Virus record (IMG/VR): IMGVR_UViG_3300040751_000264
Span: 1-64,000 of that record
Source of the DNA: a virus
Direction: 5' to 3' (one strand)
DNA: 64,000 nt
The notes beneath the pieces are model-generated. The model did not search any database. It saw nothing but the letters and a program-made list of their open reading frames with translations, and was not told the DNA's origin. Below, piece after piece: positions 1-25,411 of the stretch. Position 1 is the stretch's first letter, and each line of letters begins with the position of its first letter. Both the position numbers and the translations under genes were made by a program.

Positions 1-680
1 GATCTTAGATGTTTCATTAGTTCTTGATGCTTCTCTGAGCAATCAAACCGCACTTGATCTAATTGATCCTTAGTCAGATAATCTATTCCCCAGCCGCTGT
101 CATCATAAAGGGGCATCTTCATTTGACGAGATCTTACTTTATGATGCCCGTCATGCTGCAAATGCTTGTACCATGTGGGAGAATTCTCATGAAAATTAAT
201 CATGGATTCTTCAAACTCTAGTCCAGCAAAAGAACACATGCCCTCTACTGTTTCATTAAAGTTTTTTACCATATTTTCATATGTAACTAAATAGGTGTTG
301 GGCTTCTTTATTGCATAGATACAGGCTGCCATATCATTAGCACATTCGTATACCGATTGACCAAAGTTACCGTGTCTGCGGAGCGTTGATGCAACCCTGT
401 CCACTGGATCTCTAGTCACTATAAATATTGGAGACTCAGGCCAGTCCTCTTGTATCTTATTAATTTGATAAACATGGTCTGGAGTTTTTTCTACCAGGAA
501 GTCCGATTCTACAGAGGCAGTTTGCTTTACAAACACCTCTCTCAAATTTCTGATATGTCGAATTGAGTACGCACCACTTTCCATGGGGATTAATGAGCAT
601 TTGCTGTTAGCACCAAGGACGGTTGCTGTGAGTGTTGTGCCAGAGTGTTTGCCACCCATAACAAAGATTGGTGTTGTCAT
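1..680 (-). CDS. Sulfotransferase-family protein, partial (runs off left edge)
   Basis: The frame starts at an ATG at 680 and stays open for 226 codons to the window edge, so the C-terminus is missing. Near the N-terminus it has a P-loop like the 5'-phosphosulfate loop of PAPS sulfotransferases (GGKHSGTT, residues 9-16), then KTPDH (about 65-69) and VTRDPVDRVAS (about 88-98), which matches the 3'-phosphate-binding motif. The family transfers sulfate from PAPS to sugars, proteins or small molecules; the acceptor here is unknown. Its ATG overlaps the stop of the upstream gene (ATGA). It is the last visible member of the accessory modification cassette. Confidence 0.8.
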   Translation of the reverse strand, partial: MTTPIFVMGGKHSGTTLTATVLGANSKCSLIPMESGAYSIRHIRNLREVFVKQTASVESDFLVEKTPDHVYQINKIQEDWPESPIFIVTRDPVDRVASTLRRHGNFGQSVYECANDMAACIYAIKKPNTYLVTYENMVKNFNETVEGMCSFAGLEFEESMINFHENSPTWYKHLQHDGHHKVRSRQMKMPLYDDSGWGIDYLTKDQLDQVRFDCSEKHQELMKHLR

Positions 681-940
681 CACAAAAAGAATGCTTGTGG
701 TCGCCAGTCGGGTCCGAACTCGTCATACCAGTCATCAAAACCAGAAGCGACGCTATCAACGCTCATATCCTTGTCAGCCTCTTGAATCTCATTCTGTTCA
801 AATTCAATATAATATAGAATTTCGTCATTAAGAACGTACTCATTTCTCTGAGTATTCGTATCAGCATCAAAGTACACCTTGATGGCGTATGTCTGATCAC
901 CCTTTACGCTGTCTTTTTCTCCTATCAATTCAAAAGCCAT
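680..940 (-). CDS. Hypothetical protein, 86 aa
   Basis: Small acidic soluble protein that I do not recognise. It begins MAFELIGEK and ends with an aromatic, proline-containing tail. A longer form from a GTG at 958 is possible, but ATG 940 is preferred because TATAAT lies exactly 6 bases before it (947-952), a leaderless layout seen repeatedly in this genome. Its stop overlaps the start of the sulfotransferase gene. It sits between a methyltransferase-like gene and a sulfotransferase, but nothing in the sequence shows its role. Confidence 0.6.
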   Translation of the reverse strand: MAFELIGEKDSVKGDQTYAIKVYFDADTNTQRNEYVLNDEILYYIEFEQNEIQEADKDMSVDSVASGFDDWYDEFGPDWRPQAFFL

Positions 941-946
941 ATCTTT

Positions 947-952
947 ATTATA
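947..952 (-). promoter_or_regulatory. -10 element, leaderless layout, for gene at 680-940
   Basis: TATAAT, a 6-base gap, then ATG at 940. It lies within the 3' end of the preceding gene. No clear -35. Confidence 0.5.
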
Positions 953-1400
953 CCTCACTCTTCTTTATTGCCCAAAAGCACAGATCTGATCTTTCATAAT
1001 CAACATCAAACTTATGTGTCTCAAACATCGCGTCTAGATCAAGGTGGTTATAGAAGTCTGACATTACTAAATTCTTGTAATATGTCGGTGGATTTTTTAT
1101 GTGCCTACCCGCCGCTGCACAGGAGAACATTACAAACTTTGACGAAACTCTGTGCATTTCTTTAAGTTGCTCAAGGTAGTTTGGGGTATATTGAAAGTAG
1201 TTAACACTCATAACAACTGTAAAAGAATTATTTTCTATACTAGACATGTAGTTAGATTCTGGATTAACAACAAAGTTTCTAGAGTTTTCAAATAGATAAT
1301 TAATAGACTTGCTTCTTGCATGTGGTACATATTCAAGAACATCTACCCCACTAAAGAAGTGCGGCATTCTTTTCTTTGTTGATTCAAAAAAGGGACTCAT
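948..1400 (-). CDS. Methyltransferase-like protein lacking motif I, 150 aa
   Basis: Resembles the central and C-terminal part of class I SAM-dependent methyltransferases: GVDVLE (about 18-23), a VVMSVN strand (about 62-67) and an LKEMHRVSSKFVMFSC segment (about 79-94). The usual N-terminal glycine-rich SAM motif is absent. The protein begins where that motif would have ended, and its ATG overlaps the stop of the upstream oxygenase (ATGA). It may be a truncated or repurposed methyltransferase. Activity cannot be inferred. Confidence 0.6.
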   Translation of the reverse strand: MSPFFESTKKRMPHFFSGVDVLEYVPHARSKSINYLFENSRNFVVNPESNYMSSIENNSFTVVMSVNYFQYTPNYLEQLKEMHRVSSKFVMFSCAAAGRHIKNPPTYYKNLVMSDFYNHLDLDAMFETHKFDVDYERSDLCFWAIKKSEV

Positions 1401-1948
1401 GGCTGATATGGGTGCTCAATATCTATGTCGGAATTCCAGGAGACAATGGTCTTCCTCTTATCAAAAAAATCGTCAGGGCTTTTGTGAACCACATAAGCAG
1501 GAAAAACTAAGGTCTGGCCCTCTCTTACGTCAGGAACAAATTCCTCTCTTGTAAAGGGGTTTACAAGAACAGTTTTAGGTGCATTGTCATCCAACTCCAA
1601 GTAGTAGACATTAGTGAAATGCGAACCATGTGTGTGCCAGCCATGACTTGCCTTTGCTAAATATTGCTGAAACCAAATTTCTTTAACCCTAAACTTGCTA
1701 AAGTTCATAACCTTAAACACTTCAGCAATGTGTGGATTCAGATATGGCATAAGGTAATCAACCCATGGTCGTGAGAAGTCTGTTGAGTCTTGCCAGTCTA
1801 CCTTTGTAACATTAAGATTGTCGGTAGGATTCTCTGCCGACCCCGCCGCACTCTGATCAATAAGATCTAACAGGCTTTGCTTAATTTCCTCATGCGGCTC
1901 AAAGTCTGACACAGCATATACTGAATCAAGTTTATGTTTGGTTATCAT
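1397..1948 (-). CDS. 2-oxoglutarate/Fe(II)-dependent oxygenase-like protein, 183 aa
   Basis: The jelly-roll oxygenase signature is visible: WHTHGSH gives H105-x-H107, VVHKSP gives H155, and a basic R165/K166 is positioned to bind 2-oxoglutarate. The family uses Fe(II), O2 and 2-oxoglutarate to hydroxylate proteins, nucleic acids or small molecules; the substrate is unknown. The start overlaps the stop of a 58-aa ORF (TAATG) and the stop overlaps the methyltransferase-like gene (ATGA). One of three oxygenases within 4 kb. Confidence 0.75.
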   Translation of the reverse strand: MITKHKLDSVYAVSDFEPHEEIKQSLLDLIDQSAAGSAENPTDNLNVTKVDWQDSTDFSRPWVDYLMPYLNPHIAEVFKVMNFSKFRVKEIWFQQYLAKASHGWHTHGSHFTNVYYLELDDNAPKTVLVNPFTREEFVPDVREGQTLVFPAYVVHKSPDDFFDKRKTIVSWNSDIDIEHPYQP

Positions 1949-2124
1949 TACATGTCCTCCACAGGATCATCAAACCTATATCTTATATACATTGCAGCAA
2001 ACCTCAATCCCTCATTAAACCATCGTGTTTGATCGTCATTTTGACGTATCATTATACACTCTTCTATCTCATCAGAAAACTTTTCTCTCCAATATTTTTC
2101 AATATCGTGCCTAAGTTCATCCAT
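1948..2124 (-). CDS. Small hypothetical protein, 58 aa
   Basis: Complete ORF beginning MDELRHDIEKYW and ending in PVEDM, charged and probably helical, no recognised domain. The ATG at 2124 is 6 bases after TACAAT, and the stop shares an A with the ATG of the downstream oxygenase (TAATG). The coupling and the promoter-like element argue that it is a real gene despite its size. It starts just 3' of tRNA-Asn. Confidence 0.6.
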   Translation of the reverse strand: MDELRHDIEKYWREKFSDEIEECIMIRQNDDQTRWFNEGLRFAAMYIRYRFDDPVEDM

Positions 2125-2130
2125 GTAACT

Positions 2131-2136
2131 ATTGTA
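2131..2136 (-). promoter_or_regulatory. -10 element, leaderless layout, between tRNA-Asn and 58-aa ORF
   Basis: TACAAT, a 6-base gap, then ATG at 2124. It lies between the 3' end of tRNA-Asn (2143) and the start codon. The -35 position would fall inside the tRNA. Confidence 0.45.
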
Positions 2137-2142
2137 TACCCG

Positions 2143-2214
2143 CTGGCGTGGTAGGATTCGAACCTACAACCCATCGATTAACAGTCGATTGCGCTGCCGT
2201 TGCGCCACACGCCA
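2143..2214 (-). tRNA. tRNA-Asn(GTT)
   Basis: A full cloverleaf can be drawn on the minus strand: 7-bp acceptor TGGCGTG/CACGCCA, discriminator G, T-loop TTCGAAT and anticodon loop centred on GTT. No CCA is encoded. Confidence 0.93.
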
Positions 2215-2218
2215 TTGT

Positions 2219-2845
2219 TTAGTTAAAGAAAGGTGACTCTTGCCACAACTTCTTTGCTTCGTTCTGCTTGACGATCTTGCGTGACCAAGAGAATCCAGCA
2301 TCCCCACCCCAAGCGTCCCACATGATGCGACCATTGGATGGATTAGAAGTATTATAAAAGTCCTTGCCCTTTTTGTCAACCTCATGGCGTGAGAAGAATG
2401 AATACATTCTCTTGACTGTAGATAGCGACATTGATCTGCCTGCAACAATATCAGAGGCTCTGCCCCAACCGACTGGCGTTCCCGCACCTGTTGCCTTGCC
2501 CTCTTCTTTCCATCGCAGGGCACGCTTTGCGGCAGCCTTCATTCCAGCGGTTGGCCTGTAGGAATCTGCTGCCTTCACTACCGCTGGATTACATGTATCG
2601 CAAATTTCACAAGGAATATTTTCTTCCTTGCACTCTGGACAGCCACAGTTTTCGTATCCTCTTTCATATGCTCCTGCATAATCGGCCTTCTGTGGCTTAA
2701 TGGGAACGCAGTTAGGAACCATTCTACCAGTGCCATCGCCTGCTGGCTTCATGCCTTCCATGCGATAACCTTCCCAGCAAGGATCTTTCTTGTCCATATT
2801 CTCTGTCATATCCTCTACGAACTCTTTCATTTCTTCACGATCCAT
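2219..2845 (-). CDS. Phage protein with Cys cluster and conserved TVKRM/RHEVD domain, 208 aa
   Basis: Start chosen at ATG 2845 because TACAAT lies 7 bases upstream; an upstream in-frame start would overlap the sulfotransferase gene. An N-terminal WEGY..GMKP motif with VPNCVP (about 24-48) is followed by six cysteines at about 67, 69, 72, 79, 82 and 85, likely a zinc site. The C-terminal half carries LSLSTVKRM, RHEVDKKG and an IMWDAWGGDAGFSW stretch. I recognise this combination as a recurrent phage module, often joined to head-maturation or capsid-associated proteins, but I am not sure of a family name. Here it is free-standing beside tRNA-Asn. Function unknown. Confidence 0.7.
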   Translation of the reverse strand: MDREEMKEFVEDMTENMDKKDPCWEGYRMEGMKPAGDGTGRMVPNCVPIKPQKADYAGAYERGYENCGCPECKEENIPCEICDTCNPAVVKAADSYRPTAGMKAAAKRALRWKEEGKATGAGTPVGWGRASDIVAGRSMSLSTVKRMYSFFSRHEVDKKGKDFYNTSNPSNGRIMWDAWGGDAGFSWSRKIVKQNEAKKLWQESPFFN

Positions 2846-2852
2846 GATATAA

Positions 2853-2858
2853 ATTGTA
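2853..2858 (-). promoter_or_regulatory. -10 element, leaderless layout, for gene at 2219-2845
   Basis: TACAAT, 7 bases, then ATG at 2845. No convincing Shine-Dalgarno sequence precedes that ATG. Confidence 0.5.
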
Positions 2859-3623
2859 TCACGATTTCCAAGAAACGCCCGTGTAGCCTGGAAGAACGTC
2901 ATAGTCTATAGCAAAATGCTTTTTGATTATCTTAATTGATTTTGGAGACAGTTCTATGCTATCTCTTTCGCTTGCATTCAATCTTTGTAACGGAACACTT
3001 TCTTCTATCCCTACCTCATCTAGAACATCCTGCCACTCATCATTAAGAACAGACAGATCTTTAATCATTCCAAGGTCTGAGGTAGATAGTGCTTCAAGCC
3101 TACGCACCTGTGGCCTAATAAAAGAAAAGTCGTCCTTAAATATATATCTTACAAATCCGTCTATTCCAGAAGAATTAATTACTGAATCTGCGTACCCGTG
3201 AACAAATGCTTCAGTGTATGGCCAAGCGTTGGGAAACTCTTGAGTCCTTATAATCTCTTTCCACCTCTGTCTATTTATTCTTCCAATGTGATACTTAACG
3301 CTTGTATGGGAGAAAAAATATAACGATTTTATTAAGTCTATTGGATCTCTTACTACAGATATTTTTTTAAAGTCACCCCAGTTTTCTGGAAGAACAAAAC
3401 TCTCTATGTCTTTAGCAGTAGAGTGTTTCCAAAGCATTGTTTTATTTACTTCATCTATGCTGTATCTGTCATATAGATTTTGCTGATATCTTTCACCATA
3501 GATTGTGCTGCCCATGATTATGTCTGACCAGTGTAGGTGTGGTTGCAAGGCTGTTTCTACGGATGTGCCGCCACACTTCTCTAGATGAATAAAAACAAAG
3601 TTTCTTGATGGACTGATAATCAT
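2859..3623 (-). CDS. Sulfotransferase-family protein, 254 aa
   Basis: Contains LEKCGGTS (residues 14-21), a sulfotransferase P-loop for the 5'-phosphosulfate of PAPS, and VVRDPIDLIKS (about 90-100), matching the 3'-phosphate motif. A longer frame reaches back to 3677 but runs through tRNA-Val, so ATG 3623 is chosen; it lies only 4 bases after the tRNA 3' end. No Shine-Dalgarno sequence can fit in that gap, so translation may start on a message trimmed by tRNA processing. Second sulfotransferase of the cassette; acceptor unknown. Confidence 0.8.
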   Translation of the reverse strand: MIISPSRNFVFIHLEKCGGTSVETALQPHLHWSDIIMGSTIYGERYQQNLYDRYSIDEVNKTMLWKHSTAKDIESFVLPENWGDFKKISVVRDPIDLIKSLYFFSHTSVKYHIGRINRQRWKEIIRTQEFPNAWPYTEAFVHGYADSVINSSGIDGFVRYIFKDDFSFIRPQVRRLEALSTSDLGMIKDLSVLNDEWQDVLDEVGIEESVPLQRLNASERDSIELSPKSIKIIKKHFAIDYDVLPGYTGVSWKS

Positions 3624-3627
3624 AGCG

Positions 3628-3700
3628 TGGACGATGAGAGATTCGAACTCCCGACATTCTGGGTGTAAACCAGACACTCTACCAACTGAGTTAATCGTCC
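3628..3700 (-). tRNA. tRNA-Val(TAC)
   Basis: Acceptor GGACGAT/ATCGTCC, discriminator A, anticodon stem TCTGG/CCAGA around a loop with TAC, T-loop TTCGAAT. No encoded CCA. One base separates it from tRNA-Thr upstream. Confidence 0.93.
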
Positions 3701-3701
3701 G

Positions 3702-3773
3702 AGCCTCCTGTCAGATTCGAACTGACGACAACCCGCTTACAAGGCGGGTACTCTACCCCTGAGTTAAGGAGGC
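3702..3773 (-). tRNA. tRNA-Thr(TGT)
   Basis: Acceptor GCCTCCT/AGGAGGC, anticodon stem CCCGC/GCGGG around loop CTTGTAA, T-loop TTCGAAT, discriminator T. No encoded CCA. Probably co-transcribed with tRNA-Val. Confidence 0.93.
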
Positions 3774-3783
3774 ATTACCCAAA

Positions 3784-4014
3784 TTATACAGGGCTTGATT
3801 CAGATGGCTTCTCGTTGATCTTATAAGTCTCATCAACAATTTCAAAGGCGTAATCACGCAGGGATTCCTCATGCTTCAGAAAGTGATGGCGGCAGAAAAG
3901 AAGATCCCCTGCTACTCCATTTACCCAAACAAAAGCCTGACTCTGACAGCGATCACAACGATCACTAATTTTTAGAACATCAGAAACTTCGTTTTCCTGA
4001 ACCATTGTTTCCAT
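3784..4014 (-). CDS. DUF7455-like small zinc protein, 76 aa
   Basis: Carries CDRCQSQAFVWV (about 20-31), then LLFCRHHFLKHE (about 39-50), a CxxC...C..H pattern that likely binds zinc. It resembles the DUF7455 proteins common in Actinobacteria and their phages; function unknown. It has the strongest promoter in the window immediately upstream and an AAAGGAG Shine-Dalgarno sequence 5 bases before its ATG. That promoter probably also drives the tRNA-Thr/Val pair and the genes below. Confidence 0.75.
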   Translation of the reverse strand: METMVQENEVSDVLKISDRCDRCQSQAFVWVNGVAGDLLFCRHHFLKHEESLRDYAFEIVDETYKINEKPSESSPV

Positions 4015-4043
4015 TATATCTCCTTTGTTTGATTGACAAGAAT

Positions 4044-4072
4044 ATTATATCGATAAAATACCGTTGTGTCAA
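4044..4072 (-). promoter_or_regulatory. Consensus housekeeping-type promoter
   Basis: TTGACA (4067-4072), a 17-base spacer, then TATAAT (4044-4049). Both boxes are perfect matches. It reads into the zinc protein and tRNA-Thr/Val. Confidence 0.85.
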
Positions 4073-4074
4073 TA

Positions 4075-4656
4075 TCAGATAGGCATGAAAGAAATGTTGA
4101 TAGCGTTTCTTTCTTGCATTGCAAGCAAGGTTTCCCTTGTGCCAATGTCATATCCACAAGTTATTCTATGGCCCTCATACTGACCGTTAGAATAAACTTT
4201 GTGTTGAACATCTGATGGGCCAATATAAATATTGCCCACCTTATTTTCAATCTCAAAGTTTTCAAACATGGTAACAGAGTCTTTCGGATCAATAGAAATG
4301 TATCCGTGACATGCCCAATCAAAGTGGGCGTGCCAATCTAATAGGTCATTTTCGTAGTGATAGTTTGCCCATGATTGCATCCATAGCGGCTCATCTGTTT
4401 GAAGATAGTCTCTAACAATATATTGCAAATCCTTGTATAGGTTGTAAAACATTTCATACCCCGCAGAGATAGCAAACAGGTTATAAACGTTATACCCCCA
4501 TGTGGAATCAATGTCTGGGTATATTGATTTAAGTGAGTTGCGTGAACTTTCAATCTCACGAACAAATTCATCTTTGTTATCAATAATCTCAGAAGAACTA
4601 TATACCTTATACCTTGGGCTTTCTCCTTCTTGCATCAGCGTTAGTCGTTCACTCAT
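4075..4656 (-). CDS. 2-oxoglutarate/Fe(II) oxygenase-like protein, 193 aa
   Basis: The WHAHFDWACHGY segment gives H109-x-H111, with H152 in SDVQHKV and R164 in GHRITCGYD. This fits a double-stranded beta-helix oxygenase (two His plus a third ligand, and an Arg for 2-oxoglutarate). Start set at ATG 4656, one base after the upstream stop; eight more in-frame codons exist but overlap that gene. It directly follows the prolyl-hydroxylase-like gene, so the two are probably co-expressed. Substrate unknown. Confidence 0.75.
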   Translation of the reverse strand: MSERLTLMQEGESPRYKVYSSSEIIDNKDEFVREIESSRNSLKSIYPDIDSTWGYNVYNLFAISAGYEMFYNLYKDLQYIVRDYLQTDEPLWMQSWANYHYENDLLDWHAHFDWACHGYISIDPKDSVTMFENFEIENKVGNIYIGPSDVQHKVYSNGQYEGHRITCGYDIGTRETLLAMQERNAINISFMPI

Positions 4657-4657
4657 G

Positions 4658-5272
4658 CTAGCCTCTGTAGTACCTTTCAAAGGTATCGCTATTAATTGTC
4701 AAACCAAACCACGTTACCAGAACATACTTGTTTCCAGAGATGGGATGCCTAGCCTCATGTGAGTATGGGAATGTAGCAGGGAACAGCACAAGCCTACCCG
4801 CCTTTGGCTGCACACTAATATCAAATTGATCAAAGTATGTCTCCCCACCCTCTTCCACATCGTTTAGATATAGAATGGCAGACATTGCCCGTGGTGTATC
4901 TGGCCCAAAGTCATAGTGTGGCTTATAGAAACCGTCGCCAGCAAGGTACTCCAACATGGAGATCTTTTCCATATGGCTGAAGAAGATATCGTTGTCCTGT
5001 GCATACTTGTTAGCCTGAAGATAGATCTTCTGTGCTGTGCTAAAGAATACTAGCGGATTCTCAAAATGGACGGGAAACGGGAAAGAATTTGATCTGCGAG
5101 AATCAGTATCAACACTTCCATCTCCACCTAGAGCAGAGGGCATCCAGTTATCTGGGATACTGTTCGCAATATCAATAAGTTCTTGCGGGTTGTCAATTAC
5201 ATTATCAATAACCCTGATTCCAGGAAAGATATCTTCTCCCTCTGCAATCTCCACATCATTAACGTATAGCAT
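4658..5272 (-). CDS. Prolyl 4-hydroxylase-like 2OG/Fe(II) oxygenase, 204 aa
   Basis: Carries the classic P4H-type active site: H119-x-D121 in KPHYDFGPD, H172 in SHEARHP and K182 in GNKYVLVTW. Between these, ILYLNDVEEGGET (about 133-145) is the usual conserved strand-loop. Family members hydroxylate prolyl or other residues in proteins, and viral homologues are common. Start at ATG 5272 with AAAGGAG upstream and a TAAAAT -10-like box at 5294-5299. Which protein or other molecule it modifies is not shown. Confidence 0.85.
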   Translation of the reverse strand: MLYVNDVEIAEGEDIFPGIRVIDNVIDNPQELIDIANSIPDNWMPSALGGDGSVDTDSRRSNSFPFPVHFENPLVFFSTAQKIYLQANKYAQDNDIFFSHMEKISMLEYLAGDGFYKPHYDFGPDTPRAMSAILYLNDVEEGGETYFDQFDISVQPKAGRLVLFPATFPYSHEARHPISGNKYVLVTWFGLTINSDTFERYYRG

Positions 5273-5299
5273 GTTTCTCCTTTTGTCAGTAGAATTTTA

Positions 5300-5953
5300 T
5301 CACAACTCTGCCTCTGAGTCTAGCCAGACTAGAGACATTGTTTTATTATGAATGACCCTAACACTTGGATCAAACCAAATCTTAAATCCAAACGACCTCG
5401 CCTTTGCACACCAAGCGGAGTCTTCTGTGGCATAAGACGCAACGGTTCCATCCTTGTTGAAAAGGAAGTTGTCGAACCACGGTCGCGGAAGTTGTTCAAA
5501 CACACCTTGCTTTATACAGATAAAGCCAAAGCCGCAAGAGGTAACTATTGACTCCCTAGACACTGGTATCTGGTGTGGATAAGGAGAACTCACCTCGTCA
5601 AAGGAAATTGCAACTGTTCCATTTGTCTGCATATATGCACCTGTAACAATATCCCTTTCTGAACGATATAGTGTAAGAACATCTTCTGGCTCCCACTGAA
5701 TATCAGAATCTATCCACATTATCTTGTTATATGTGAACTTTCCAGAGAAGGGCACTTCAGAATCAAACTGGTCATCATTTCTATCATTAATTACCCTTTC
5801 TCTTGCGTGACGCAGAGTTGGTGATTCATAATTAATAAATTGCCAAGTTATCCCCTCTTCTTCTAAAACCTTAATGGTCTTAGTTAGGCTCCTGACAAAT
5901 GCACCAGTGATCAAAGACCCTGGCGTTCCTATTACTATGTCGTAGTGTTCCAT
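5300..5953 (-). CDS. GT-A fold glycosyltransferase, 217 aa
   Basis: An early ARERVINDRN region is followed by IMWIDSDIQW (about 78-87), giving the D82-S-D84 metal and sugar-nucleotide motif of GT-A enzymes. A later acidic TEDSAWC segment is a candidate catalytic region. It likely transfers a sugar from a nucleotide donor; donor and acceptor are unknown. The ATG at 5953 lies 13 bases after tRNA-Tyr with an AAAGGAAG Shine-Dalgarno sequence between them, so it is probably transcribed through the tRNAs. Confidence 0.75.
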   Translation of the reverse strand: MEHYDIVIGTPGSLITGAFVRSLTKTIKVLEEEGITWQFINYESPTLRHARERVINDRNDDQFDSEVPFSGKFTYNKIMWIDSDIQWEPEDVLTLYRSERDIVTGAYMQTNGTVAISFDEVSSPYPHQIPVSRESIVTSCGFGFICIKQGVFEQLPRPWFDNFLFNKDGTVASYATEDSAWCAKARSFGFKIWFDPSVRVIHNKTMSLVWLDSEAEL

Positions 5954-5966
5954 AACTTCCTTTCTG

Positions 5967-6046
5967 TGCCCGATGCTGGAATCGAACCAGCCATGCCAAC
6001 GGCGACGGTTTTACAGACCGCTTCCCCACCTTGGGGACTATCGGGC
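5967..6046 (-). tRNA. tRNA-Tyr(GTA)
   Basis: Acceptor GCCCGAT/ATCGGGC, anticodon stem GCGGT/ACCGT with loop CTGTAAA, T-stem GCTGG/CCAGC. It has the long variable arm expected of bacterial tRNA-Tyr. No encoded CCA. Confidence 0.93.
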
Positions 6047-6051
6047 TTAAG

Positions 6052-6124
6052 TGCCCCTGGCAGGAGTCGAACCTGCGACTTAAGCATTAGAAGTGCTCCA
6101 CTCTGTCCTCTGAGTTACAGGGGC
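6052..6124 (-). tRNA. tRNA-Arg(TCT)
   Basis: Acceptor GCCCCTG/CAGGGGC, D-stem ACTC/GAGT, anticodon stem GAGCA/TGCTT with loop CTTCTAA, T-stem GCAGG/CCTGC. It reads AGA/AGG codons, often rare in actinobacterial hosts. Confidence 0.92.
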
Positions 6125-6145
6125 GTAACATCAACTTCCCAAGCG

Positions 6146-6216
6146 AGCGGCTGACCAGAATCGAACTGGCGATAAGAGTTTGGAAGACTCTTGTGTTACC
6201 TCTACACCACAGCCGC
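6146..6216 (-). tRNA. tRNA-Gly(TCC)
   Basis: Acceptor GCGGCTG/CAGCCGC, discriminator T, anticodon stem AGAGT/ACTCT with loop CTTCCAA, T-loop TTCGATT. Reads GGA/GGG. Confidence 0.93.
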
Positions 6217-6223
6217 GAATAGG

Positions 6224-6421
6224 CTACCTTGTAGTCTTGGTCCACTGCAATTTGTATTGCTTTAGACCCATTCGATAGCACCTATTGTACTCCTCTGCGT
6301 ACTTCTTTTCAAGTGCCTCGCCTTGCTTGCCGCCAACAGACTTCTTGATAGAATCCATTGCCTTTTCTAGATCACGCAATGCACGCTGATCTTCTTCTGT
6401 ATAATCTTCTTTAGACTTCAA
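6224..6421 (-). CDS. Hypothetical charged helical protein, 65 aa
   Basis: Lysine- and glutamate-rich, predicted helical throughout (MKSKEDYTEEDQRALRD at the N-terminus), no recognised domain. Its ATG overlaps the upstream stop (ATGA) and its end lies 7 bases before tRNA-Gly, so it appears to be the last protein gene before the three-tRNA block. Confidence 0.6.
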   Translation of the reverse strand: MKSKEDYTEEDQRALRDLEKAMDSIKKSVGGKQGEALEKKYAEEYNRCYRMGLKQYKLQWTKTTR

Positions 6422-6906
6422 CTTGCTACCTCCAATAGTTCCTCGTTATACATTAATAGATGCGTAGGCCACACATAACTGCATTTATCGCAACATGAGA
6501 TGGCCTCGTCATGCACGAACTCTGCATAAAACTCTGGGTCTTTATTATATAGATTATTACGATGGGATTGGTGGACACGCTCATCATTCCACCACGGCGG
6601 CATTACGATGTTGCTTCCACGGTCCCAATTATCACTGTGCATCTTGGTGATTGCTGACCAGTTCTTCTCAGTAGCAATGCCACGAAACTCACACTCTAGC
6701 ATCATGTTCTCTAGATATGCGTAAAGAGCATTGTCATAGTTGCGCCACATCTTAACGGCAGGGTGATTGACCCAGCCACCCTTAGTACGGCCAGAGGACA
6801 GAATGTTGTAGATCTGACGACCCTCTAGCAGTTGCTTGTTAAGCCGCTTGTTGTCTAGCACAACAGCAGACTCATGCATGTCTGCATACGGAACAAAGGT
6901 TTGCAT
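6418..6906 (-). CDS. Pyrimidine dimer DNA glycosylase-like protein, 162 aa
   Basis: From ATG 6906 the protein reads MQTFVPYADMHESAVVLDN, then RLNKQLLEGRQI, then a GWVNHPAVKMWRNY block. This resembles the T4 endonuclease V-like pyrimidine dimer glycosylase family widespread in Actinobacteria and their phages. A C-terminal CCDKC suggests an extra metal site. If active it would excise UV-induced dimers. A TTG at 6921 is possible but overlaps the upstream gene. Assignment is from motif memory, so moderate. Confidence 0.6.
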   Translation of the reverse strand: MQTFVPYADMHESAVVLDNKRLNKQLLEGRQIYNILSSGRTKGGWVNHPAVKMWRNYDNALYAYLENMMLECEFRGIATEKNWSAITKMHSDNWDRGSNIVMPPWWNDERVHQSHRNNLYNKDPEFYAEFVHDEAISCCDKCSYVWPTHLLMYNEELLEVAS

Positions 6907-6907
6907 A

Positions 6908-7090
6908 TTAATCCATTTCAATCAGGTCCAACGGCGTTGGAGCAGTTAACTTAGTATGACAGTAAGCGCACTCACAGTCAAGTAGGTAGGAGGTAATTTC
7001 GTATGCTTCATCAAATTGAACCTGAACGGTAAATAAAGATGATCCACAGGTGACGCATTCCCTGGTGGGGATACCACGGCAGTCAAGCAT
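6908..7090 (-). CDS. Small zinc-ribbon protein, 60 aa
   Basis: Two cysteine pairs, CVTC (about 12-15) and CECAYC (about 39-44), suggest a zinc ribbon. AAGGAG lies 6 bases before ATG 7090. Short Cys4 proteins like this are common in actinophages without known function. It lies directly downstream of a stem-loop at 7114-7144. Confidence 0.65.
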   Translation of the reverse strand: MLDCRGIPTRECVTCGSSLFTVQVQFDEAYEITSYLLDCECAYCHTKLTAPTPLDLIEMD

Positions 7091-7113
7091 TATTACTCCT
7101 TATATATGACTTA

Positions 7114-7144
7114 TCCACGCCCCCAATTTTACAGGAGGCGTGGA
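7114..7144 (-). terminator. Stem-loop between 57-aa gene and zinc-ribbon gene
   Basis: Inverted repeat TCCACGCC/GGCGTGGA (8 bp) around a 15-base loop. No strong T-run follows, so it may be a weak terminator or an mRNA 3' end stabiliser. Confidence 0.45.
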
Positions 7145-7157
7145 CAAATGTCAATAA

Positions 7158-7331
7158 TTAGAGTCCTGCACGACTGAAGATTGCATCAATTTCTTGGACA
7201 TGGTGAGGGCCGAACTTTGCTGCGGCTTCCCTCTGCTTTGTCCACTCACGATGCATTGCACGGATAGCCTTTTCATCTTCGCTTGTGGCGTTTGTGAAAA
7301 GATTCTCAAAGGCACGCTTGAGTGACTTCAT
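7158..7331 (-). CDS. Small hypothetical protein, 57 aa
   Basis: Complete ORF beginning MKSLKRAFENLF and ending FSRAGL, probably helical. It has a near-ideal AAGGAGG Shine-Dalgarno sequence and lies 33 bases from a well-matched promoter, so it is very likely expressed and probably early or strongly. No domain recognised. Confidence 0.7.
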   Translation of the reverse strand: MKSLKRAFENLFTNATSEDEKAIRAMHREWTKQREAAAKFGPHHVQEIDAIFSRAGL

Positions 7332-7364
7332 ATTTCCTCCTTTTGGGATTGTTGGGATATCACA

Positions 7365-7393
7365 ATCATATCAGAGTTTTGTATGAGAGTCAA
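7365..7393 (-). promoter_or_regulatory. Sigma-70-type promoter for the 57-aa gene
   Basis: TTGACT (7388-7393), 17-base spacer, TATGAT (7365-7370). A strong Shine-Dalgarno sequence and ATG 7331 follow. Confidence 0.8.
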
Positions 7394-7414
7394 ACAAAAA
7401 CGATGTGATCTTCA

Positions 7415-8182
7415 TCAACTTGGCTTGCAGGGACAGTCCTTGCAATAGGTTGGAGCAGACTCCTTTGGCCTTGGCTCATAGTCATCGTTCTTAGAGAATG
7501 GAACCTTGCCAAAGATGGCCTTGTGAGCCTTCTCATCATACTCTCTGCGTTCCCAGCCCATCCAATCCTGCATTGCACGAATAGCGTTCTTTGGATATGC
7601 CTGCTCACCATCTGGAGCAACCTTGCCACTATAGAACCCTAGTTCCTTTAGTCTGCAAGCAAGCCTCCATGTTGCCTTATTCCTAGCACCTGATGCAATA
7701 GAATCTTCTAGAACATCAAAGAAGGGGATGTATCCGTCCCATACCCCGATCTCACCATCTATGAGGATTGGGATATCAAACTTCGATCCATCTTGCTCTC
7801 CTTCTTTTGTGAAGGAAACATGCATGTGATGCTCATGACCCCAGTCACCGTTTCTCCATGTCCAGAACTGGCGTGGGTACGATCCGCTTGCAATTCTGTC
7901 TTCATATACCACATATTTGAGTCTAGAAGATCCTGGACGCTTGTTACGAGCATAAGCAATAATCTGCCTTGCCAGCCACTCGCTATCCATCTTTGACCCT
8001 CTCAGATCCTCATCAATGTCTAGAGCATGAACATACCCACGACTATCTGGATTATGGTCGCTCTTCCTGGCGGAATGAGCAGAATCCCCTACGATTCCAT
8101 CTGACCTCTTATCTCTCTTAGGCCAACGGTCATCAATTTGCTTACGCAATGTTGTGATTCCTGCTACTGGCTTCCAACTCAT
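7415..8182 (-). CDS. Endolysin, M15-type peptidase with C-terminal wall-binding-like region, 255 aa
   Basis: Residues about 33-57 hold SAHSARKSDHNP followed by HALDID, and about 115-123 hold GHEHHMHVS. This His/Asp arrangement is that of zinc M15/VanY-like L,D- or D,D-peptidases found in many actinophage endolysins. The second half (about 165-230, LKELGFYSGKVAPDGEQA) looks like a peptidoglycan-binding fold, and the C-terminus has a Cys pair near the end. Start chosen at ATG 8182 with AAGGAG upstream; the frame extends to 8212 without a better site. No signal peptide, so a holin or other export route is expected. Confidence 0.8.
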   Translation of the reverse strand: MSWKPVAGITTLRKQIDDRWPKRDKRSDGIVGDSAHSARKSDHNPDSRGYVHALDIDEDLRGSKMDSEWLARQIIAYARNKRPGSSRLKYVVYEDRIASGSYPRQFWTWRNGDWGHEHHMHVSFTKEGEQDGSKFDIPILIDGEIGVWDGYIPFFDVLEDSIASGARNKATWRLACRLKELGFYSGKVAPDGEQAYPKNAIRAMQDWMGWERREYDEKAHKAIFGKVPFSKNDDYEPRPKESAPTYCKDCPCKPS

Positions 8183-8208
8183 TTTGCTCTCCTTTTTCTT
8201 TAAAAAAC

Positions 8209-8349
8209 TCATTTCTTTTCCATCGACTTTCTTATTCTATAAACGTCTGTGATCCAATTAGAAACAAGATGGTGATCTCCTTCTTCACAAGGAAGAAAGC
8301 ATTGATGCGTTATACAAACATATTCACTATCGTCATCAAGTATATCCAT
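8209..8349 (-). CDS. Small hypothetical protein, 46 aa
   Basis: Starts MDILDDDSEYVC and contains three cysteines and several histidines (CITHQCFLPC), possibly a metal site. TGGAG precedes ATG 8349 by 6 bases; ATG 8355 is an alternative two codons upstream. The end touches the longer endolysin frame. Supported only by reading frame, spacing and packing. Confidence 0.45.
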   Translation of the reverse strand: MDILDDDSEYVCITHQCFLPCEEGDHHLVSNWITDVYRIRKSMEKK

Positions 8350-8372
8350 GGGCATCTCCAGACAAACATTAT

Positions 8373-8552
8373 TTATTCCATTTTATCATGTGTTGTATGA
8401 ACATCTTGAACCTGCTTAAGTTGCTCTAACTCATCTTGCAGCCTATAAATTTCTGCTGTGAGATTGGCAATCTCAACCTCATATCCATGAACCACCTTCG
8501 AATGTCTACTCAGAACATTGTTAAGTGTCTTTGTAACATATTCGTTATTCAT
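8373..8552 (-). CDS. Small coiled-coil protein, 59 aa
   Basis: The segment EIANLTAEIYRLQDELEQL (about 27-45) has heptad spacing typical of a coiled coil. The ATG at 8552 overlaps the stop of the upstream gene. No family recognised; a small oligomerising or regulatory protein is possible. Confidence 0.55.
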   Translation of the reverse strand: MNNEYVTKTLNNVLSRHSKVVHGYEVEIANLTAEIYRLQDELEQLKQVQDVHTTHDKME

Positions 8553-8751
8553 CTATTATCTCCAATTCATGATTCTCAAACATGCTTTTACATACCTGGG
8601 CATTCGACCATCTCTCTGCTGATTTACGAGACAGAAACTTTGCCTTATTTATTGATGTTATTTGGTTTGACATAAATTCTTCAGACCATTCTTTTTTAAA
8701 AATGCTGGCCTGAATTATCAAACCTTTTCTACAAATTTTTGCAACATACAT
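8545..8751 (-). CDS. Hypothetical protein, 68 aa
   Basis: Start chosen at ATG 8751 because AAAGGAAC precedes it and TATAAT lies at 8772-8777; an upstream start would run back to 8772. The product is basic at its N-terminus and contains KAKFLSRKSAERW, which looks like a small compact nucleic-acid-associated or regulatory protein. No family recognised. Confidence 0.6.
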   Translation of the reverse strand: MYVAKICRKGLIIQASIFKKEWSEEFMSNQITSINKAKFLSRKSAERWSNAQVCKSMFENHELEIIDE

Positions 8752-8771
8752 GCTCGTTCCTTTTCCGAACA

Positions 8772-8777
8772 ATTATA
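8772..8777 (-). promoter_or_regulatory. -10 element before the gene at 8545-8751
   Basis: TATAAT overlapping the stop of the methyltransferase gene, followed about 20 bases later by ATG 8751 with a Shine-Dalgarno sequence. Confidence 0.5.
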
Positions 8778-9285
8778 CATCAAAGCGTGCCCAGTAAGCA
8801 CCCGTTATGTTGCCAAGCCAATGGTCTTGGATGCCAGGGAACGTGCTTAAAACCTCTTTGTGGCTCCAATCCTCTTTAACGTGCTCTTCATAAGGATTGC
8901 CATTAATTGCATGTTGATGATAATTAATAATTGGAATAGAAATTACACCATACTTACATTTACGAGATGCCTTTGTCCAAACATCAAACGCCTCTTCTTG
9001 AGTCATATGCTCTAGAACATCGCCAAAGATTACTAAGTCATGATGATACTTGGTAAACTCTCTAATGTCTTCTTTGTATACCTTGTTGTACTTATCCTTT
9101 AGAGAAAAGGTATCAATATATGGCTGCCAAATCTCTACTGCATCCATTGTAGGATTAAAACCCTTGTTGTAAAAATAATCTCTATATGTCCCTGAGCCAG
9201 CACCAACATCAAGGACTGTTTTAACTCTTGCCCTTTTTGCTTTTTCCATAATCCAAGGCTTTGTTTCAGGATGTGAAGTTCCCAT
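8773..9285 (-). CDS. Class I SAM-dependent methyltransferase, 170 aa
   Basis: Motif I is complete (VLDVGAGSGTY, about 24-34), then VYKEDIREF (motif II/III region), LVIFGDVLEHM (about 84-94, motif IV) and a GVISIPI strand. This is the Methyltransf-type fold used on small molecules, sugars, lipids or proteins. It overlaps the upstream glycosyltransferase by 20 bases and has GGAGGAG before ATG 9285, so it probably works in the same pathway, perhaps methylating a sugar. Substrate unknown. Confidence 0.8.
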   Translation of the reverse strand: MGTSHPETKPWIMEKAKRARVKTVLDVGAGSGTYRDYFYNKGFNPTMDAVEIWQPYIDTFSLKDKYNKVYKEDIREFTKYHHDLVIFGDVLEHMTQEEAFDVWTKASRKCKYGVISIPIINYHQHAINGNPYEEHVKEDWSHKEVLSTFPGIQDHWLGNITGAYWARFDV

Positions 9286-9892
9286 TTACATACTCCTCCA
9301 TTAATTTATTGTAATTAAGTTCTGATGTTACTCTGTGTGCAGGATGATAAAGGTGATAATCAAATCCATCAACGTAGTGTGCGTTGCCAAGTTTTGCCTT
9401 GATCAATATGTGAAAAGCATCGTCTTCTGCACCCCAACCAATAAAGCCTTCGTCCATTCCTCCAACCTTTTGCCAAAGGCTTTTCTTTATTACATATGCT
9501 CCGCCTGTAAAATTCTTCTCTGGATCATTGATAAAACTGTCTGTGTTGGGCTTGAAGTTATTTTTACCAACATAAAAAGAGTTTGTTGCCTCTTCTGTTA
9601 GATATCCAAAGTGTGAGAAAGGCTTGACAAGGCAATCTTTTCTTGCCGCCACCTTGATGGCAGACTTTATCTGTGATATTTCTATATAGTTGTCTGCATC
9701 TATTAGAACAGCAACCTCAGATTCTGATTTTTCCACCCCTGCATTTCTCGCAGCAGAACGATTAAACTTTCCCTCATTGTCTCCTATTACAACGTCAAAC
9801 TCTTTTGAATAATAATCATACAAAAAATCAAAGTGTTTTCTCCTATAAACGCAGTCTGGATCTCTCCAGGGTAGGATTACTTGCTGCCTCAT
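9266..9892 (-). CDS. Glycosyltransferase, GT2 / galactosyltransferase-like, 208 aa
   Basis: LIDADNYI (about 63-70) supplies the DxD motif (D65, D67). The stretch GGMDEGFIGWGAEDDAF (144-160) matches the conserved acceptor and catalytic region of galactosyltransferase C-terminal domains. It likely transfers a hexose to a sugar or protein acceptor. Its ATG overlaps the stop of the larger glycosyltransferase (ATGA), making a translationally coupled pair. Confidence 0.8.
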   Translation of the reverse strand: MRQQVILPWRDPDCVYRRKHFDFLYDYYSKEFDVVIGDNEGKFNRSAARNAGVEKSESEVAVLIDADNYIEISQIKSAIKVAARKDCLVKPFSHFGYLTEEATNSFYVGKNNFKPNTDSFINDPEKNFTGGAYVIKKSLWQKVGGMDEGFIGWGAEDDAFHILIKAKLGNAHYVDGFDYHLYHPAHRVTSELNYNKLMEEYVNGNFTS

Positions 9893-10968
9893 TTTATATC
9901 TTCCTTATCACTATTATGACAGATACAATCACAAATTTCTTTTGCAAAGCAACGAGAGTGGTATCCTTCTCTGCAATAACCAGTCTTTGATATTTCTACT
10001 AAATTAAAATCTTTGTCAAACTCAATCTCTTGAGTAACAAGTCCAAGATTTACTTTGTCAGATAAATCTTTTTCATAAAACTCTTCAAAGTTTATGCCAA
10101 TCATCTCTTGATATTCAAGGTATTTTTGGTAGTCGCCTATGCCGAAAGTTCCCTGCTCCACTCCTAATAAAACATCTCTTTGCACACGTTGAGATCTCAT
10201 CTCAATGTCTGTCCAGGATCTTCCAGCCATGTTGTCTTTCCATATTTTCGGACGCTCTTCTCTTTTATAGAAATGCCAACACACCATTTCGTTTGGTGCA
10301 TAGATGTGCCAACCTCTTGTAAAGGCACGAATAGCAAAGCATAATTCCTCACCCATAAAGGATATTCTTTCATCATAAGGAATCTCTTCAACAACCTTCC
10401 CTGGAGCAAATAACAGTCCTGCGAGAATTGTGTGGGAATAGTGTGGGGAAGACATGTCTTCAATCTTCTCACGGTTCCCTGCCCACACGCCTGTCCAAGT
10501 ATTAACTACGGTTGTCCAAGATGGCTCGTCCCAAAAATCCTCATCTCCAAGGACGTAGTGGTCTGTTCCGTCTGTCAATGGCATGTATGGGGCAGGGAAC
10601 TGGCTGAGAATAATCTTGTCTGTTCCTTGCTTTTCAACTGCTACATGATACATATCTATAAGTTTGGAATCCCATCCTTCAGCAAACCTCATGTGGGAGT
10701 CTGTCTGAAAAAAGAAATCCTCGCCACGGTATTCTTCCACGGCGAGTTTTCTTGCATATCCTGCACCCTTTGCATCCTTAGCATGTACCTTTACTAAGAT
10801 TAGTTGATCTTCTGGTATGAAGTCTAACTTTGGGTGATTGTTTCTAAGTTCCTGAGATATAACACAAATTGTTAGATCCTCTGGTCTGCTTGCATTCTCG
10901 TAAATGCTGCGAACAGTTTTCACTATTTCTTCATCACGATATGAAGCAATAGAAACAAATATGCTCAC
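9889..10968 (-). CDS. Glycosyltransferase (GlcNAc-transferase-like) with Cys-rich tail, 359 aa
   Basis: Starts MSIFVSIASYRDEE, typical of the GlcNAc glycosyltransferase family seen in phages. FFFQTDSHMRF (about 85-95) provides a D-x-H metal motif, and MGEELCFAIRAFTRGW is a conserved downstream helix. The last 30 residues hold a Cys/His cluster (C332, H337, C340, C346, C348, C350, H351) that could bind zinc. Likely donor UDP-GlcNAc by family resemblance; acceptor unknown. Coupled to the genes on both sides. Confidence 0.8.
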   Translation of the reverse strand: MSIFVSIASYRDEEIVKTVRSIYENASRPEDLTICVISQELRNNHPKLDFIPEDQLILVKVHAKDAKGAGYARKLAVEEYRGEDFFFQTDSHMRFAEGWDSKLIDMYHVAVEKQGTDKIILSQFPAPYMPLTDGTDHYVLGDEDFWDEPSWTTVVNTWTGVWAGNREKIEDMSSPHYSHTILAGLLFAPGKVVEEIPYDERISFMGEELCFAIRAFTRGWHIYAPNEMVCWHFYKREERPKIWKDNMAGRSWTDIEMRSQRVQRDVLLGVEQGTFGIGDYQKYLEYQEMIGINFEEFYEKDLSDKVNLGLVTQEIEFDKDFNLVEISKTGYCREGYHSRCFAKEICDCICHNSDKEDIK

Positions 10969-11195
10969 TTAACAGGGTTCCTTTCAAGGAGCACTATTGC
11001 TCCATTTTGCTCAAGTGCCTTCTTTACCTTGATCATATATTCTACTGCTGCAATCTTTTGATCATGCTCTAGTTTGTAAAACTCAATCTCATCTGCACGA
11101 ACAGTAAGAAAGTCATCGTGATCAAAGATATCTACATGAAATCCCTTGGGAGGATTTAGAGATCTAACGGCCTTTGCCATCTCCATCGTATACAT
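10965..11195 (-). CDS. Hypothetical protein, 76 aa
   Basis: Start at ATG 11195, which shares its A with the WhiB stop (TAATG) and has GGAGGTAA upstream. The product is acidic in its middle (VDIFDHDDFLTVRADE) with a helical second half. No family recognised. Its stop overlaps the glycosyltransferase start, tying the WhiB gene into the same coupled operon as the modification enzymes. Confidence 0.6.
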   Translation of the reverse strand: MYTMEMAKAVRSLNPPKGFHVDIFDHDDFLTVRADEIEFYKLEHDQKIAAVEYMIKVKKALEQNGAIVLLERNPVK

Positions 11196-11476
11196 TAGTT
11201 TACCTCCATTGTTAGGGACTCCCAAGTGTTTGACCAATCTTCTTTGGCCTTATGAGAGTTAAATTCCTTGTCTATTTTACCATCCTTCAAATAGACACCT
11301 CCCCAAACTCCCCACTCTTTTCTAGAAACACCTGAGGCAAAACACTCCTGATTAACCTTGCATCTTGCACAGATGTTGTCTACAGACTTGGCAAGTTTTT
11401 GATCTTCTTCATACTTGTCAAAGAAGAGATTGGTATCCATTCCTAAGCATTCTGCATCATCCTTCCACCTGTGCAT
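11195..11476 (-). CDS. whiB: WhiB-like iron-sulfur transcription factor, 93 aa
   Basis: Four cysteines C10, C36, C39 and C45 have the WhiB spacing (C-x25-C-x2-C-x5-C) and are followed by GVWGG at 56-60, the turn that contacts the primary sigma factor. WhiB proteins are essentially restricted to Actinobacteria and their phages and bind a 4Fe-4S cluster. Known phage WhiB proteins can interfere with host WhiB regulation. GGGAGAAACC precedes ATG 11476. This is the strongest host indicator in the window. Confidence 0.9.
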   Translation of the reverse strand: MHRWKDDAECLGMDTNLFFDKYEEDQKLAKSVDNICARCKVNQECFASGVSRKEWGVWGGVYLKDGKIDKEFNSHKAKEDWSNTWESLTMEVN

Positions 11477-11687
11477 GGTTTCTCCCTATCTGGTTTGGAA
11501 TGTGCCAGCCTTTTTCGGTGATAGGGAATACTCTCTTCTTATTCCACTGTCCGTCACGATACTCAGCATCCTTTGAATATACCGCGTTGTGGTTTGGGGT
11601 ATGTCGAACTACATCCCAGCCATCCCACGATAGACTCTCATGGTTAGAAACAATTTCTTCCATGACTTCTAGGCTACTTACTAGCAT
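11457..11687 (-). CDS. Hypothetical protein, 76 aa
   Basis: Contains GWDVVRHTPNHNAVYSKDAEYRD-like alternating strands and ends in HAQVEG; no family recognised. AGGAG precedes ATG 11687. It overlaps WhiB by 20 bases and the deaminase by 14 bases, so it belongs to the same coupled run. Confidence 0.6.
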   Translation of the reverse strand: MLVSSLEVMEEIVSNHESLSWDGWDVVRHTPNHNAVYSKDAEYRDGQWNKKRVFPITEKGWHIPNQIGRNHAQVEG

Positions 11688-25367: not shown

Positions 25368-25386
25368 ATTAACTCCTATTGATAAT

Positions 25387-25411
25387 GGGGGAGGGCGCAG
25401 TGCCCTCCCCC
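25387..25411 (-). terminator. GC-rich 10-bp hairpin downstream of the SSB-like gene
   Basis: GGGGGAGGGC/GCCCTCCCCC with a 5-base loop, starting 7 bases after the SSB-like stop. It lacks a strong T-run (ATTATC follows). It could act as a partial terminator reducing expression of downstream genes including the polymerase. Confidence 0.65.

What the first reader, a model, noticed from the sequence alone, without database searches (positions are those of the whole stretch)
1..10968. Cassette of oxygenases, glycosyltransferases, sulfotransferases and methyltransferases
Within 11 kb there are three 2OG/Fe(II) oxygenases (one prolyl-4-hydroxylase-like), three glycosyltransferases, two sulfotransferases and two methyltransferase-like proteins, interspersed with tRNAs and coupled to WhiB. 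Motifs for most are visible. Hydroxylation followed by glycosylation, sulfation and methylation is the logic of building a decorated glycan on a hydroxylated acceptor. Phage-encoded glycosyltransferases that modify virion proteins are known in actinophages, but sulfotransferases together with P4H-like enzymes in one locus are not something I recognise. Targets could be virion proteins, host surface glycans or DNA.
Basis: partly seen in the sequence, partly recalled or inferred. Interest (0 to 1): 0.78.

Follow-up and report, generated by a model that had tools for sequence, protein, structure and literature searches.

The report
Phage protein-glycosylation locus with variable decorations
An uncultured virus of actinobacteria carries a near-universal enzyme that probably attaches a sugar to one of its own proteins, beside a slot of interchangeable sugar-building enzymes and a changing set of hydroxylase and sulfate-adding enzymes; related enzymes sit in the tail-fibre gene block of other phages, so the likely product is a chemically decorated virus particle.

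Summary
The enzymes are really there and intact, except methyltransferase MTa, which looks degenerate. They are not one cassette. In 28 related IMG/VR records two tiers appear. (1) A near-core unit, WhiB-V90-GT60 (PF11397; 22 of 28 relatives), is followed by a slot in which other glycosyltransferases and methyltransferases are swapped. The GT60 model's best PDB matches are all polypeptide GalNAc-transferases and it keeps their D-x-H/H motif, so this is probably protein O-glycosylation. Yet the same families lie inside tail-fibre modules of relatives and unrelated phages. Loci found only by a tail-protein (PFFPP)n repeat carry P4H-like genes in 55 of 77 clusters, against 9 of 116 for collagen-like repeats. 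A few such modules also hold GT60 or a sulfotransferase-like gene. DNA as target is disfavoured (no Tet/JBP, no thymidylate-synthase-like gene in the sequence held). Best reading: virion-protein glycosylation and tail decoration. The substrate of the window's P4H is unknown; its own subclade lacks the repeat. Nothing has been tested chemically.

The parts
9889..10968 (-). GT60: PF11397 glycosyltransferase, likely polypeptide HexNAc-transferase; near-core in the clade
   Evidence: PF11397 E 1.7e-50; 22 of 28 relatives; D90xH92, E207-E208 and H232 invariant in 20 sequences; top 50 PDB fold matches all polypeptide GalNAc-transferases; dN/dS 0.05
9266..9892 (-). GTb: GT2-type galactosyltransferase-like, likely chain extension
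   Evidence: PF10111 E 1.7e-10, PF02709 E 3e-10; about 12 relatives, in the slot after GT60; dN/dS 0.07
8773..9285 (-). MTb: SAM methyltransferase with motif I DVGAGSG
   Evidence: PF08241 23.4 bits, cut-off 21.2; motif; 5 relatives, always next to GTb; dN/dS 0.08
10965..11237 (-). V90: conserved 90-aa ORF between WhiB and GT60, function unknown
   Evidence: in 23 relatives, overlaps GT60 by 4 bases
11195..11476 (-). WhiB-like regulator (actinobacterial host marker)
   Evidence: PF02467 E 4.8e-13
5300..5953 (-). GTa: small GT-A-type glycosyltransferase (phrog_1574), sporadic
   Evidence: invariant D82xD84 and ED-x-x-WC; model pLDDT 74, PDB matches include STIV A197, COLGALT1, Mnn9 and LH3 at TM about 0.5; also in G027 and G019
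4658..5272 (-). P4H: prolyl-4-hydroxylase-like 2OG/Fe(II) oxygenase, sporadic
   Evidence: PF13640 E 7.6e-15; H119xD121 and H172; solved P4H matches E 6e-10
4075..4680 (-). OXb: 2OG oxygenase of phrog_2696/phrog_81, overlaps P4H
   Evidence: H-A-H and distal H; otherwise only in G027
2859..3677 (-). STb: Sulfotransfer_2-type sulfotransferase (listed start overlaps tRNA-Val; true start probably the internal ATG of MIISPSRNF)
   Evidence: PF03567 22.8 bits; GGTS and RDPIDLIKS; also G006, G007, G010
1397..1948 (-). OXa: 2OG oxygenase of phrog_81
   Evidence: E 4.5e-25; not in any relative examined
948..1400 (-). MTa: methyltransferase-like, probably degenerate
   Evidence: phrog_32762 E 1.6e-17; motif I lost relative to three homologues
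3..683 (-). STa: Sulfotransfer_3-type sulfotransferase, cut by contig end
   Evidence: PF13469 E 8.9e-17; SGTT and RDPVDRVAS; Sulfotransfer_3 genes lie in tail modules of G012 and G019
6418..6921 (-). pyrimidine dimer DNA glycosylase (clade marker, not part of the glycan set)
   Evidence: PF03013 E 1.7e-18
7415..8212 (-). endolysin-like protein that separates the two enzyme groups
   Evidence: conserved in most relatives; no Pfam hit; reading by eye
2142..6216 (-). six tRNA genes (Asn, Val, Thr, Tyr, Arg, Gly) within the accessory stretch
   Evidence: ARAGORN; the same region of Streptomyces phage Karimac is tRNA-rich
31973..32584 (-). tail-module protein with a poly-proline linker, possible but unsupported P4H substrate
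   Evidence: 33 Pro; homologues in P4H-lacking relatives are also Pro-rich

Best explanation
The locus is a virion-protein modification region of an uncultured actinophage related to Stanwilliamsviridae. GT60 adds a HexNAc to a side chain of a phage protein (inferred from family and fold). The adjacent slot (here GTb and MTb) extends and caps that glycan, and its content is swapped between relatives, so the glycan differs from phage to phage (the swapping is shown, the chemistry inferred). Further downstream, sporadically gained P4H, 2OG-oxygenase, GTa and sulfotransferase genes probably decorate tail-fibre proteins by hydroxylation, glycosylation of a hydroxylated residue, and sulfation (inferred from their place in tail-fibre modules of relatives and unrelated phages). 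The benefit would be changed adsorption or evasion of host or environmental recognition (inferred).
For: GT60 is in 22 of 28 relatives, directly after WhiB-V90, under strong purifying selection, with its motif residues invariant; its fold matches are all polypeptide GalNAc-transferases. Characterised GT60 enzymes are polypeptide alpha-GlcNAc-transferases, one acting on hydroxyproline of Skp1 (PMC8724618). The slot after GT60 holds GTb-MTb, GT2-GTb, GTb-GT2, GT32/GT25/MT or others in different relatives, and in another group a GT4-FkbM-GT4 set lies about 4 kb downstream; G017, which lacks GT60, has none of the glycosyltransferases profiled. P4H, GTa, sulfotransferase and GT homologues sit inside tail-fibre modules of G018, G019 and G012. 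In cyanophages GTa lies just upstream of baseplate genes in 6 of 8 genomes examined. Independent pattern search: PFFPP-repeat loci carry P4H in 55 of 77 clusters, collagen-like loci in 9 of 116. GT60 lies with P4H beside PFFPP tail proteins in L379, L316 and L334.
Against: No acceptor protein is identified and no chemistry has been tested. The window's P4H belongs to a subclade of nine (support 0.997), none in a PFFPP locus and only two in a tail module. GT60 and P4H are 4.6 kb apart in the window and vary independently in the clade. Many relatives are fragments, so absences are uncertain. Structural TM-scores are about 0.5.
Confidence: 0.6

Rival explanations
1. One linear pathway: P4H hydroxylates, GTs glycosylate the hydroxyl, STs sulfate and MTs methylate the same glycan.
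For: All activities are encoded in 11 kb here. G010 has DUF6065-P4H-2OG-ORF-STb-GT60 in one tight run. L379 and L316 pair P4H with GT60 beside a Pro-repeat tail protein, and L350, L353, L354 and L216 pair P4H with a sulfotransferase-like gene (the sulfotransferase call is weak).
Against: In the clade GT60 mostly occurs without P4H and the sporadic genes do not travel together. MTa looks degenerate. The window's genes form separate groups with gaps.
Confidence: 0.15
2. The GTs and STs modify host cell-surface glycans, for example to block superinfection or release progeny.
For: Phage glycosyltransferases that change host serotype are known (cited in PMC12619734). The genes lie in an accessory region with tRNAs, away from the visible virion genes.
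Against: GT60 is of a protein-modifying type. Homologues of the other enzymes sit inside tail modules.
Confidence: 0.12
3. The 2OG oxygenases repair DNA or consume 2-oxoglutarate, as proposed for cyanophages, and are unrelated to the GTs.
For: PMC3037559 and PMC2984593 propose these roles. Close relatives of the window's P4H in L155 and L156 lie near the pyrimidine-dimer glycosylase.
Against: P4H-like genes are strongly tied to PFFPP tail proteins and pair with GTa in tail modules. The family is P4H-like by Pfam and PDB match.
Confidence: 0.12
4. DNA hypermodification: 2OG enzymes oxidise a base, GTs glycosylate it, and further groups are added.
For: Phage DNA glycosyltransferases exist (cited in PMC12619734).
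Against: No Tet/JBP hit over cut-off and no thymidylate-synthase/hydroxymethylase homologue in 26 records; GT60 resembles protein glycosyltransferases. The 65.7-kb window record is incomplete.
Confidence: 0.04

Closest known systems
GT60 polypeptide alpha-GlcNAc-transferases (Skp1 Gnt1 of Dictyostelium; PF11397)
   Same: Same Pfam family; D-x-H motif; predicted fold like polypeptide GalNAc-transferases
   Different: Phage-encoded, with a Cys/His-rich C-terminal tail in most members; acceptor and sugar unknown; not adjacent to P4H in the window
Virion glycosylation in mycobacteriophages (Freeman et al. 2023, known here only through citations)
   Same: Actinophage glycosyltransferases thought to act on virion proteins
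   Different: Here a GT60 initiator plus swappable slot; homology to the mycobacteriophage enzymes was not tested
Cyanophage 2OG oxygenase / T4-GC 102 glycosyltransferase genes upstream of baseplate gp25-gp6
   Same: P4H-, OXa- and GTa-family genes, with GTa near a 2OG gene in P-SSM2 and Sf-FS3
   Different: No GT60 or sulfotransferase match in those stretches; T4-like phages of cyanobacteria
Collagen hydroxylysine galactosyltransferase COLGALT1 and lysyl hydroxylase LH3
   Same: Among the best fold matches of GTa, in phages that also encode a 2OG hydroxylase
   Different: TM about 0.5 and 10% identity, so only a GT-A-level resemblance; not membership
Streptomyces phages of Stanwilliamsviridae (Karimac)
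   Same: Terminase 54-55% identical; tRNA-rich accessory region after the terminase
   Different: No GT60 match in phage records except Xanthomonas and Stenotrophomonas jumbo phages
Xanthomonas phage XacN1 GT60 followed by carbamoyltransferase
   Same: GT60 with a decorating enzyme, as in relative G020
   Different: 27% identity, unrelated jumbo phage

Membership tests
GT60 / PF11397 polypeptide GlcNAc-transferase | Pfam model above curated cut-off | tested here: met
   172.9 bits against 21
GT60 / PF11397 polypeptide GlcNAc-transferase | GT-A fold with D-x-H and a further His as metal ligands | tested here: met
   D90, H92 and H232 invariant in 20 sequences; fold matches only polypeptide GalNAc-transferases in the top 50; the role of H232 as third ligand is inferred
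GT60 / PF11397 polypeptide GlcNAc-transferase | transfers GlcNAc to Ser/Thr or hydroxyproline of a protein | not testable with these tools
   needs enzyme assay
Skp1-type hydroxyproline glycosylation | P4H and GT60 function as an obligate pair | tested here: not met
   GT60 in 22 of 28 relatives, P4H-type hits in 5 of 28; the pair is adjacent in some unrelated phages
Prolyl 4-hydroxylase-like 2OG oxygenase | PF13640 and HxD...H iron site | tested here: met
Prolyl 4-hydroxylase-like 2OG oxygenase | hydroxylates proline | not testable with these tools
   lysine, asparagine or other substrates are possible
PAPS sulfotransferase | family model plus 5' and 3' PAPS-binding motifs | tested here: met
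   STa clear, STb borderline by model; motifs present in both
SAM methyltransferase (MTa) | intact SAM-binding motif I | tested here: not met
   motif I lost in the window copy
DNA hypermodification system | Tet/JBP oxygenase or thymidylate-synthase-like hydroxymethylase | tested here: not met
   the window record is a fragment
Stanwilliamsviridae | family-level genome relatedness | tested here: inconclusive
   terminase 54-55% identity and similar order; no genome-wide demarcation computed
Mycobacteriophage virion glycosylation | homologous glycosyltransferases and glycosylated capsid or tail tube | not tested
   paper not held

The most novel reading that the evidence does not exclude
Some tailed phages hydroxylate proline repeats in their tail fibres and attach HexNAc, and sometimes sulfate, to the hydroxyproline: a phage counterpart of eukaryotic hydroxyproline O-glycosylation, of which the window's P4H, GT60 and sulfotransferase set is a dispersed version.
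Probability: 0.25. Interest if true: 0.88.

Novelty: new variant of a known kind. Interest (0 to 1): 0.62.

Why it matters
Phage glycosyltransferases are usually annotated one by one and guessed to act on DNA or host envelope. Here a near-core protein-type initiator with a swappable extension slot makes a testable model of how a phage lineage varies the sugars on its particle. The tie between P4H-like genes and Pro-repeat tail proteins offers a concrete substrate for the hundreds of phage 2OG oxygenases whose role has been unclear, and may bear on phage adsorption and recognition.

Tried and rejected
Poly-proline linker at 31973-32584 as the P4H substrate: homologues in P4H-lacking relatives are also Pro-rich, and the linker is hypervariable (Pro, Gly, Ala or Thr/Asn), so no support. 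Transfer of the PFFPP-P4H link to the window's own P4H: its subclade has no PFFPP locus. Collagen-like repeats as a general P4H partner: only 9 of 116 loci. Defence-system annotation: only generic hits. GT60 in bacterial genomes with the conserved patterns used: nothing found. Literature on phage P4H with sulfotransferase, on phage GT60 and on hydroxyproline in phage tails: nothing relevant in the held library. Clostridial protein matches to the P4H were taken as chance and not followed.
Full report
WHAT IS THERE. The window is the first 64,000 bases of a linear 65,690-base virus record. Its terminase is 54-55% identical to that of Karimac-type Streptomyces phages (Stanwilliamsviridae), in which the region after the terminase is also a tRNA-rich accessory region. 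WhiB points to an actinobacterial host. Most carry intact catalytic motifs. The exception is MTa: relatives have E-x-G-S-x-x-I-N-G in the SAM motif I region, the window copy has EYVPHARSKS, and further segments are missing. STa is cut by the contig end.

TWO TIERS, NOT ONE CASSETTE. I fetched 28 related IMG/VR records, most of them in full or for the region needed, and searched them with profiles grown from each window protein. Tier 1: WhiB, V90 and GT60 follow each other; GT60 is in 22 of 28 relatives. Of the six without it, several end before or near the position; G017 has the full position and lacks it. The slot directly after GT60 is swapped between relatives: GTb-MTb (as here), GT2-GTb, GTb-GT2, or GT32/GT25/methyltransferase. 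In G003, G004 and G012 the extra enzymes (GT4-FkbM-GT4) lie about 4 kb downstream. G020 has a carbamoyltransferase after GT60, and G008 a tryptophan halogenase-family gene further on. In G017 none of the glycosyltransferase or methyltransferase families profiled is found. Tier 2: P4H (6 genomes with the window), STb (4), MTa (4), GTa (3), OXb (2), OXa (1), STa (1), in different combinations. G027 shares GTa-P4H-OXb with the window, and G010 has DUF6065-P4H-2OG-ORF-STb-GT60 (second copy). Many records are fragments, so absences are soft.

GT60 IS PROBABLY A PROTEIN GLYCOSYLTRANSFERASE. PF11397, 172.9 bits against a cut-off of 21. In 20 phage sequences D90, H92, E207, E208 and H232 are invariant. 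An AlphaFold model (pLDDT 81) has its 50 best PDB matches all among polypeptide GalNAc-transferases (E down to 9e-14, TM about 0.5, 15% identity). Characterised GT60 enzymes are polypeptide alpha-GlcNAc-transferases of protists, and the Dictyostelium Skp1 enzyme acts on hydroxyproline (PMC8724618). dN/dS against G024 is 0.05 for GT60, 0.07 for GTb and 0.08 for MTb; terminase is 0.03 (synonymous sites are near saturation). Target and sugar remain unknown.

THE SPORADIC ENZYMES POINT TO TAIL FIBRES. In G018 three P4H-like genes and two DUF6065/phrog_7084-type genes lie between tail-fibre genes. In G019 sulfotransferase, GTa, GTa, GT2, DUF6065, GT4, GT17 and GT2 do. In G012 a Sulfotransfer_3 gene lies between tail-fibre genes. 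GTa homologues occur in 106 phage records, mainly cyanophages; in eight annotated neighbourhoods read, six have GTa just upstream of baseplate genes (gp25-gp6 type), and P-SSM2 and Sf-FS3 have 2OG/P4H-annotated genes near it. The GTa model (pLDDT 74) matches GT-A enzymes including collagen hydroxylysine galactosyltransferase and LH3, which is suggestive only.

A GENERAL LINK OUTSIDE THE WINDOW. Of 80 phage loci found by P4H, many hold an array of P4H-like and DUF6065 genes, and in the array loci whose neighbours I read these sit among tail-fibre genes, often directly after a tail protein ending in (PFFPP)n. To test this without using P4H, I searched IMG/VR for DNA encoding PFFPPFFPP: 90 of 120 loci carry a P4H-like gene, or 55 of 77 after grouping similar loci. 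Among tail-fibre loci, P4H is in 31 of 32 with PFFPP and 16 of 48 without (seeded from a P4H locus, so biased). GT60, above the Pfam cut-off, lies with P4H beside PFFPP proteins in L379, L316 and L334, and beside P4H in L172. A sulfotransferase-like gene with PAPS motifs but only weak Pfam support (E 0.03 or none) follows P4H-DUF6065 in L216, L350, L353 and L354.

LIMITS. The window's P4H belongs to a distinct subclade of nine (support 0.997). None lies in a PFFPP locus; L151 and L152 lie in tail modules, the others in accessory regions, L155 and L156 near the pyrimidine-dimer glycosylase. The PFFPP link therefore supports the family's role, not this protein's substrate. DNA as target is disfavoured: no Tet/JBP over cut-off, no thymidylate-synthase homologue. 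Published ideas for cyanophage 2OG oxygenases are DNA repair and 2-oxoglutarate control (PMC2984593, PMC3037559) and are not excluded here.

VERDICT. Real, intact for the most part, and best read as a virion-protein glycosylation locus (near-core initiator, swappable extension) with a changing set of tail-decorating enzymes. It is a new variant of a known kind; the hydroxyproline-glycan version is possible but unproven.

Noticed in passing
L169, L173, L178, L179, L189, L199, L208, L210, L379 and others (IMG/VR); G018 1-12000: Arrays of two to six P4H-like genes plus paired DUF6065/phrog_7084 genes at or shortly after a tail protein ending in (PFFPP)n repeats; the association is far stronger than for collagen-like repeats.
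   Followed up: yes
L379 8402-9406, L316 5129-6082, L334 1357-2268, L172 627-1541: GT60 (PF11397) genes next to P4H; in L379, L316 and L334 beside a Pro-repeat tail protein as well.
   Followed up: partly
G008 4540-6000 (L076) and L152 6579-8171: Tryptophan-halogenase-family genes in these phages; in L152 the gene overlaps a P4H by one base within a tail module.
   Followed up: no
L148 (Xanthomonas phage XacN1) and G020 65663-67366: GT60 followed by a carbamoyltransferase in two unrelated phages.
   Followed up: no
PHROGs phrog_2297 and phrog_274; P-SSM2 PSSM2_104 (L141 14602-15231): Families labelled DNA endonuclease (V) match the P4H (E 4e-18, 2e-10), and P-SSM2 'denV' matches a 2OG oxygenase profile (E 1e-4): probable misannotation.
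   Followed up: partly
window 31973-32584: Tail-module protein whose low-complexity linker is poly-Pro here and Gly-, Ala- or Thr/Asn/Pro-rich in relatives.
   Followed up: partly
relatives, between pyrimidine-dimer glycosylase and L65 (e.g. L083 9695-10525): A glycoside-hydrolase-family-10-like gene present in nine relatives at a position that is empty in the window.
   Followed up: no
window 24645-25424 and 16282-17001: A phrog_7084 (DUF6065-type) protein and a phrog_17480 protein; relatives of both occur beside P4H-like genes in other phages, here they lie far from the cassette.
   Followed up: partly
window 948-1400: MTa has lost SAM motif I and internal segments kept in three relatives, so it may be decaying or repurposed.
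   Followed up: partly
G012 101369-101743 and 1-561: The contig ends share a Pro-rich repeat within one gene, which suggests a circularly permuted, nearly complete 101.7-kb genome.
   Followed up: no
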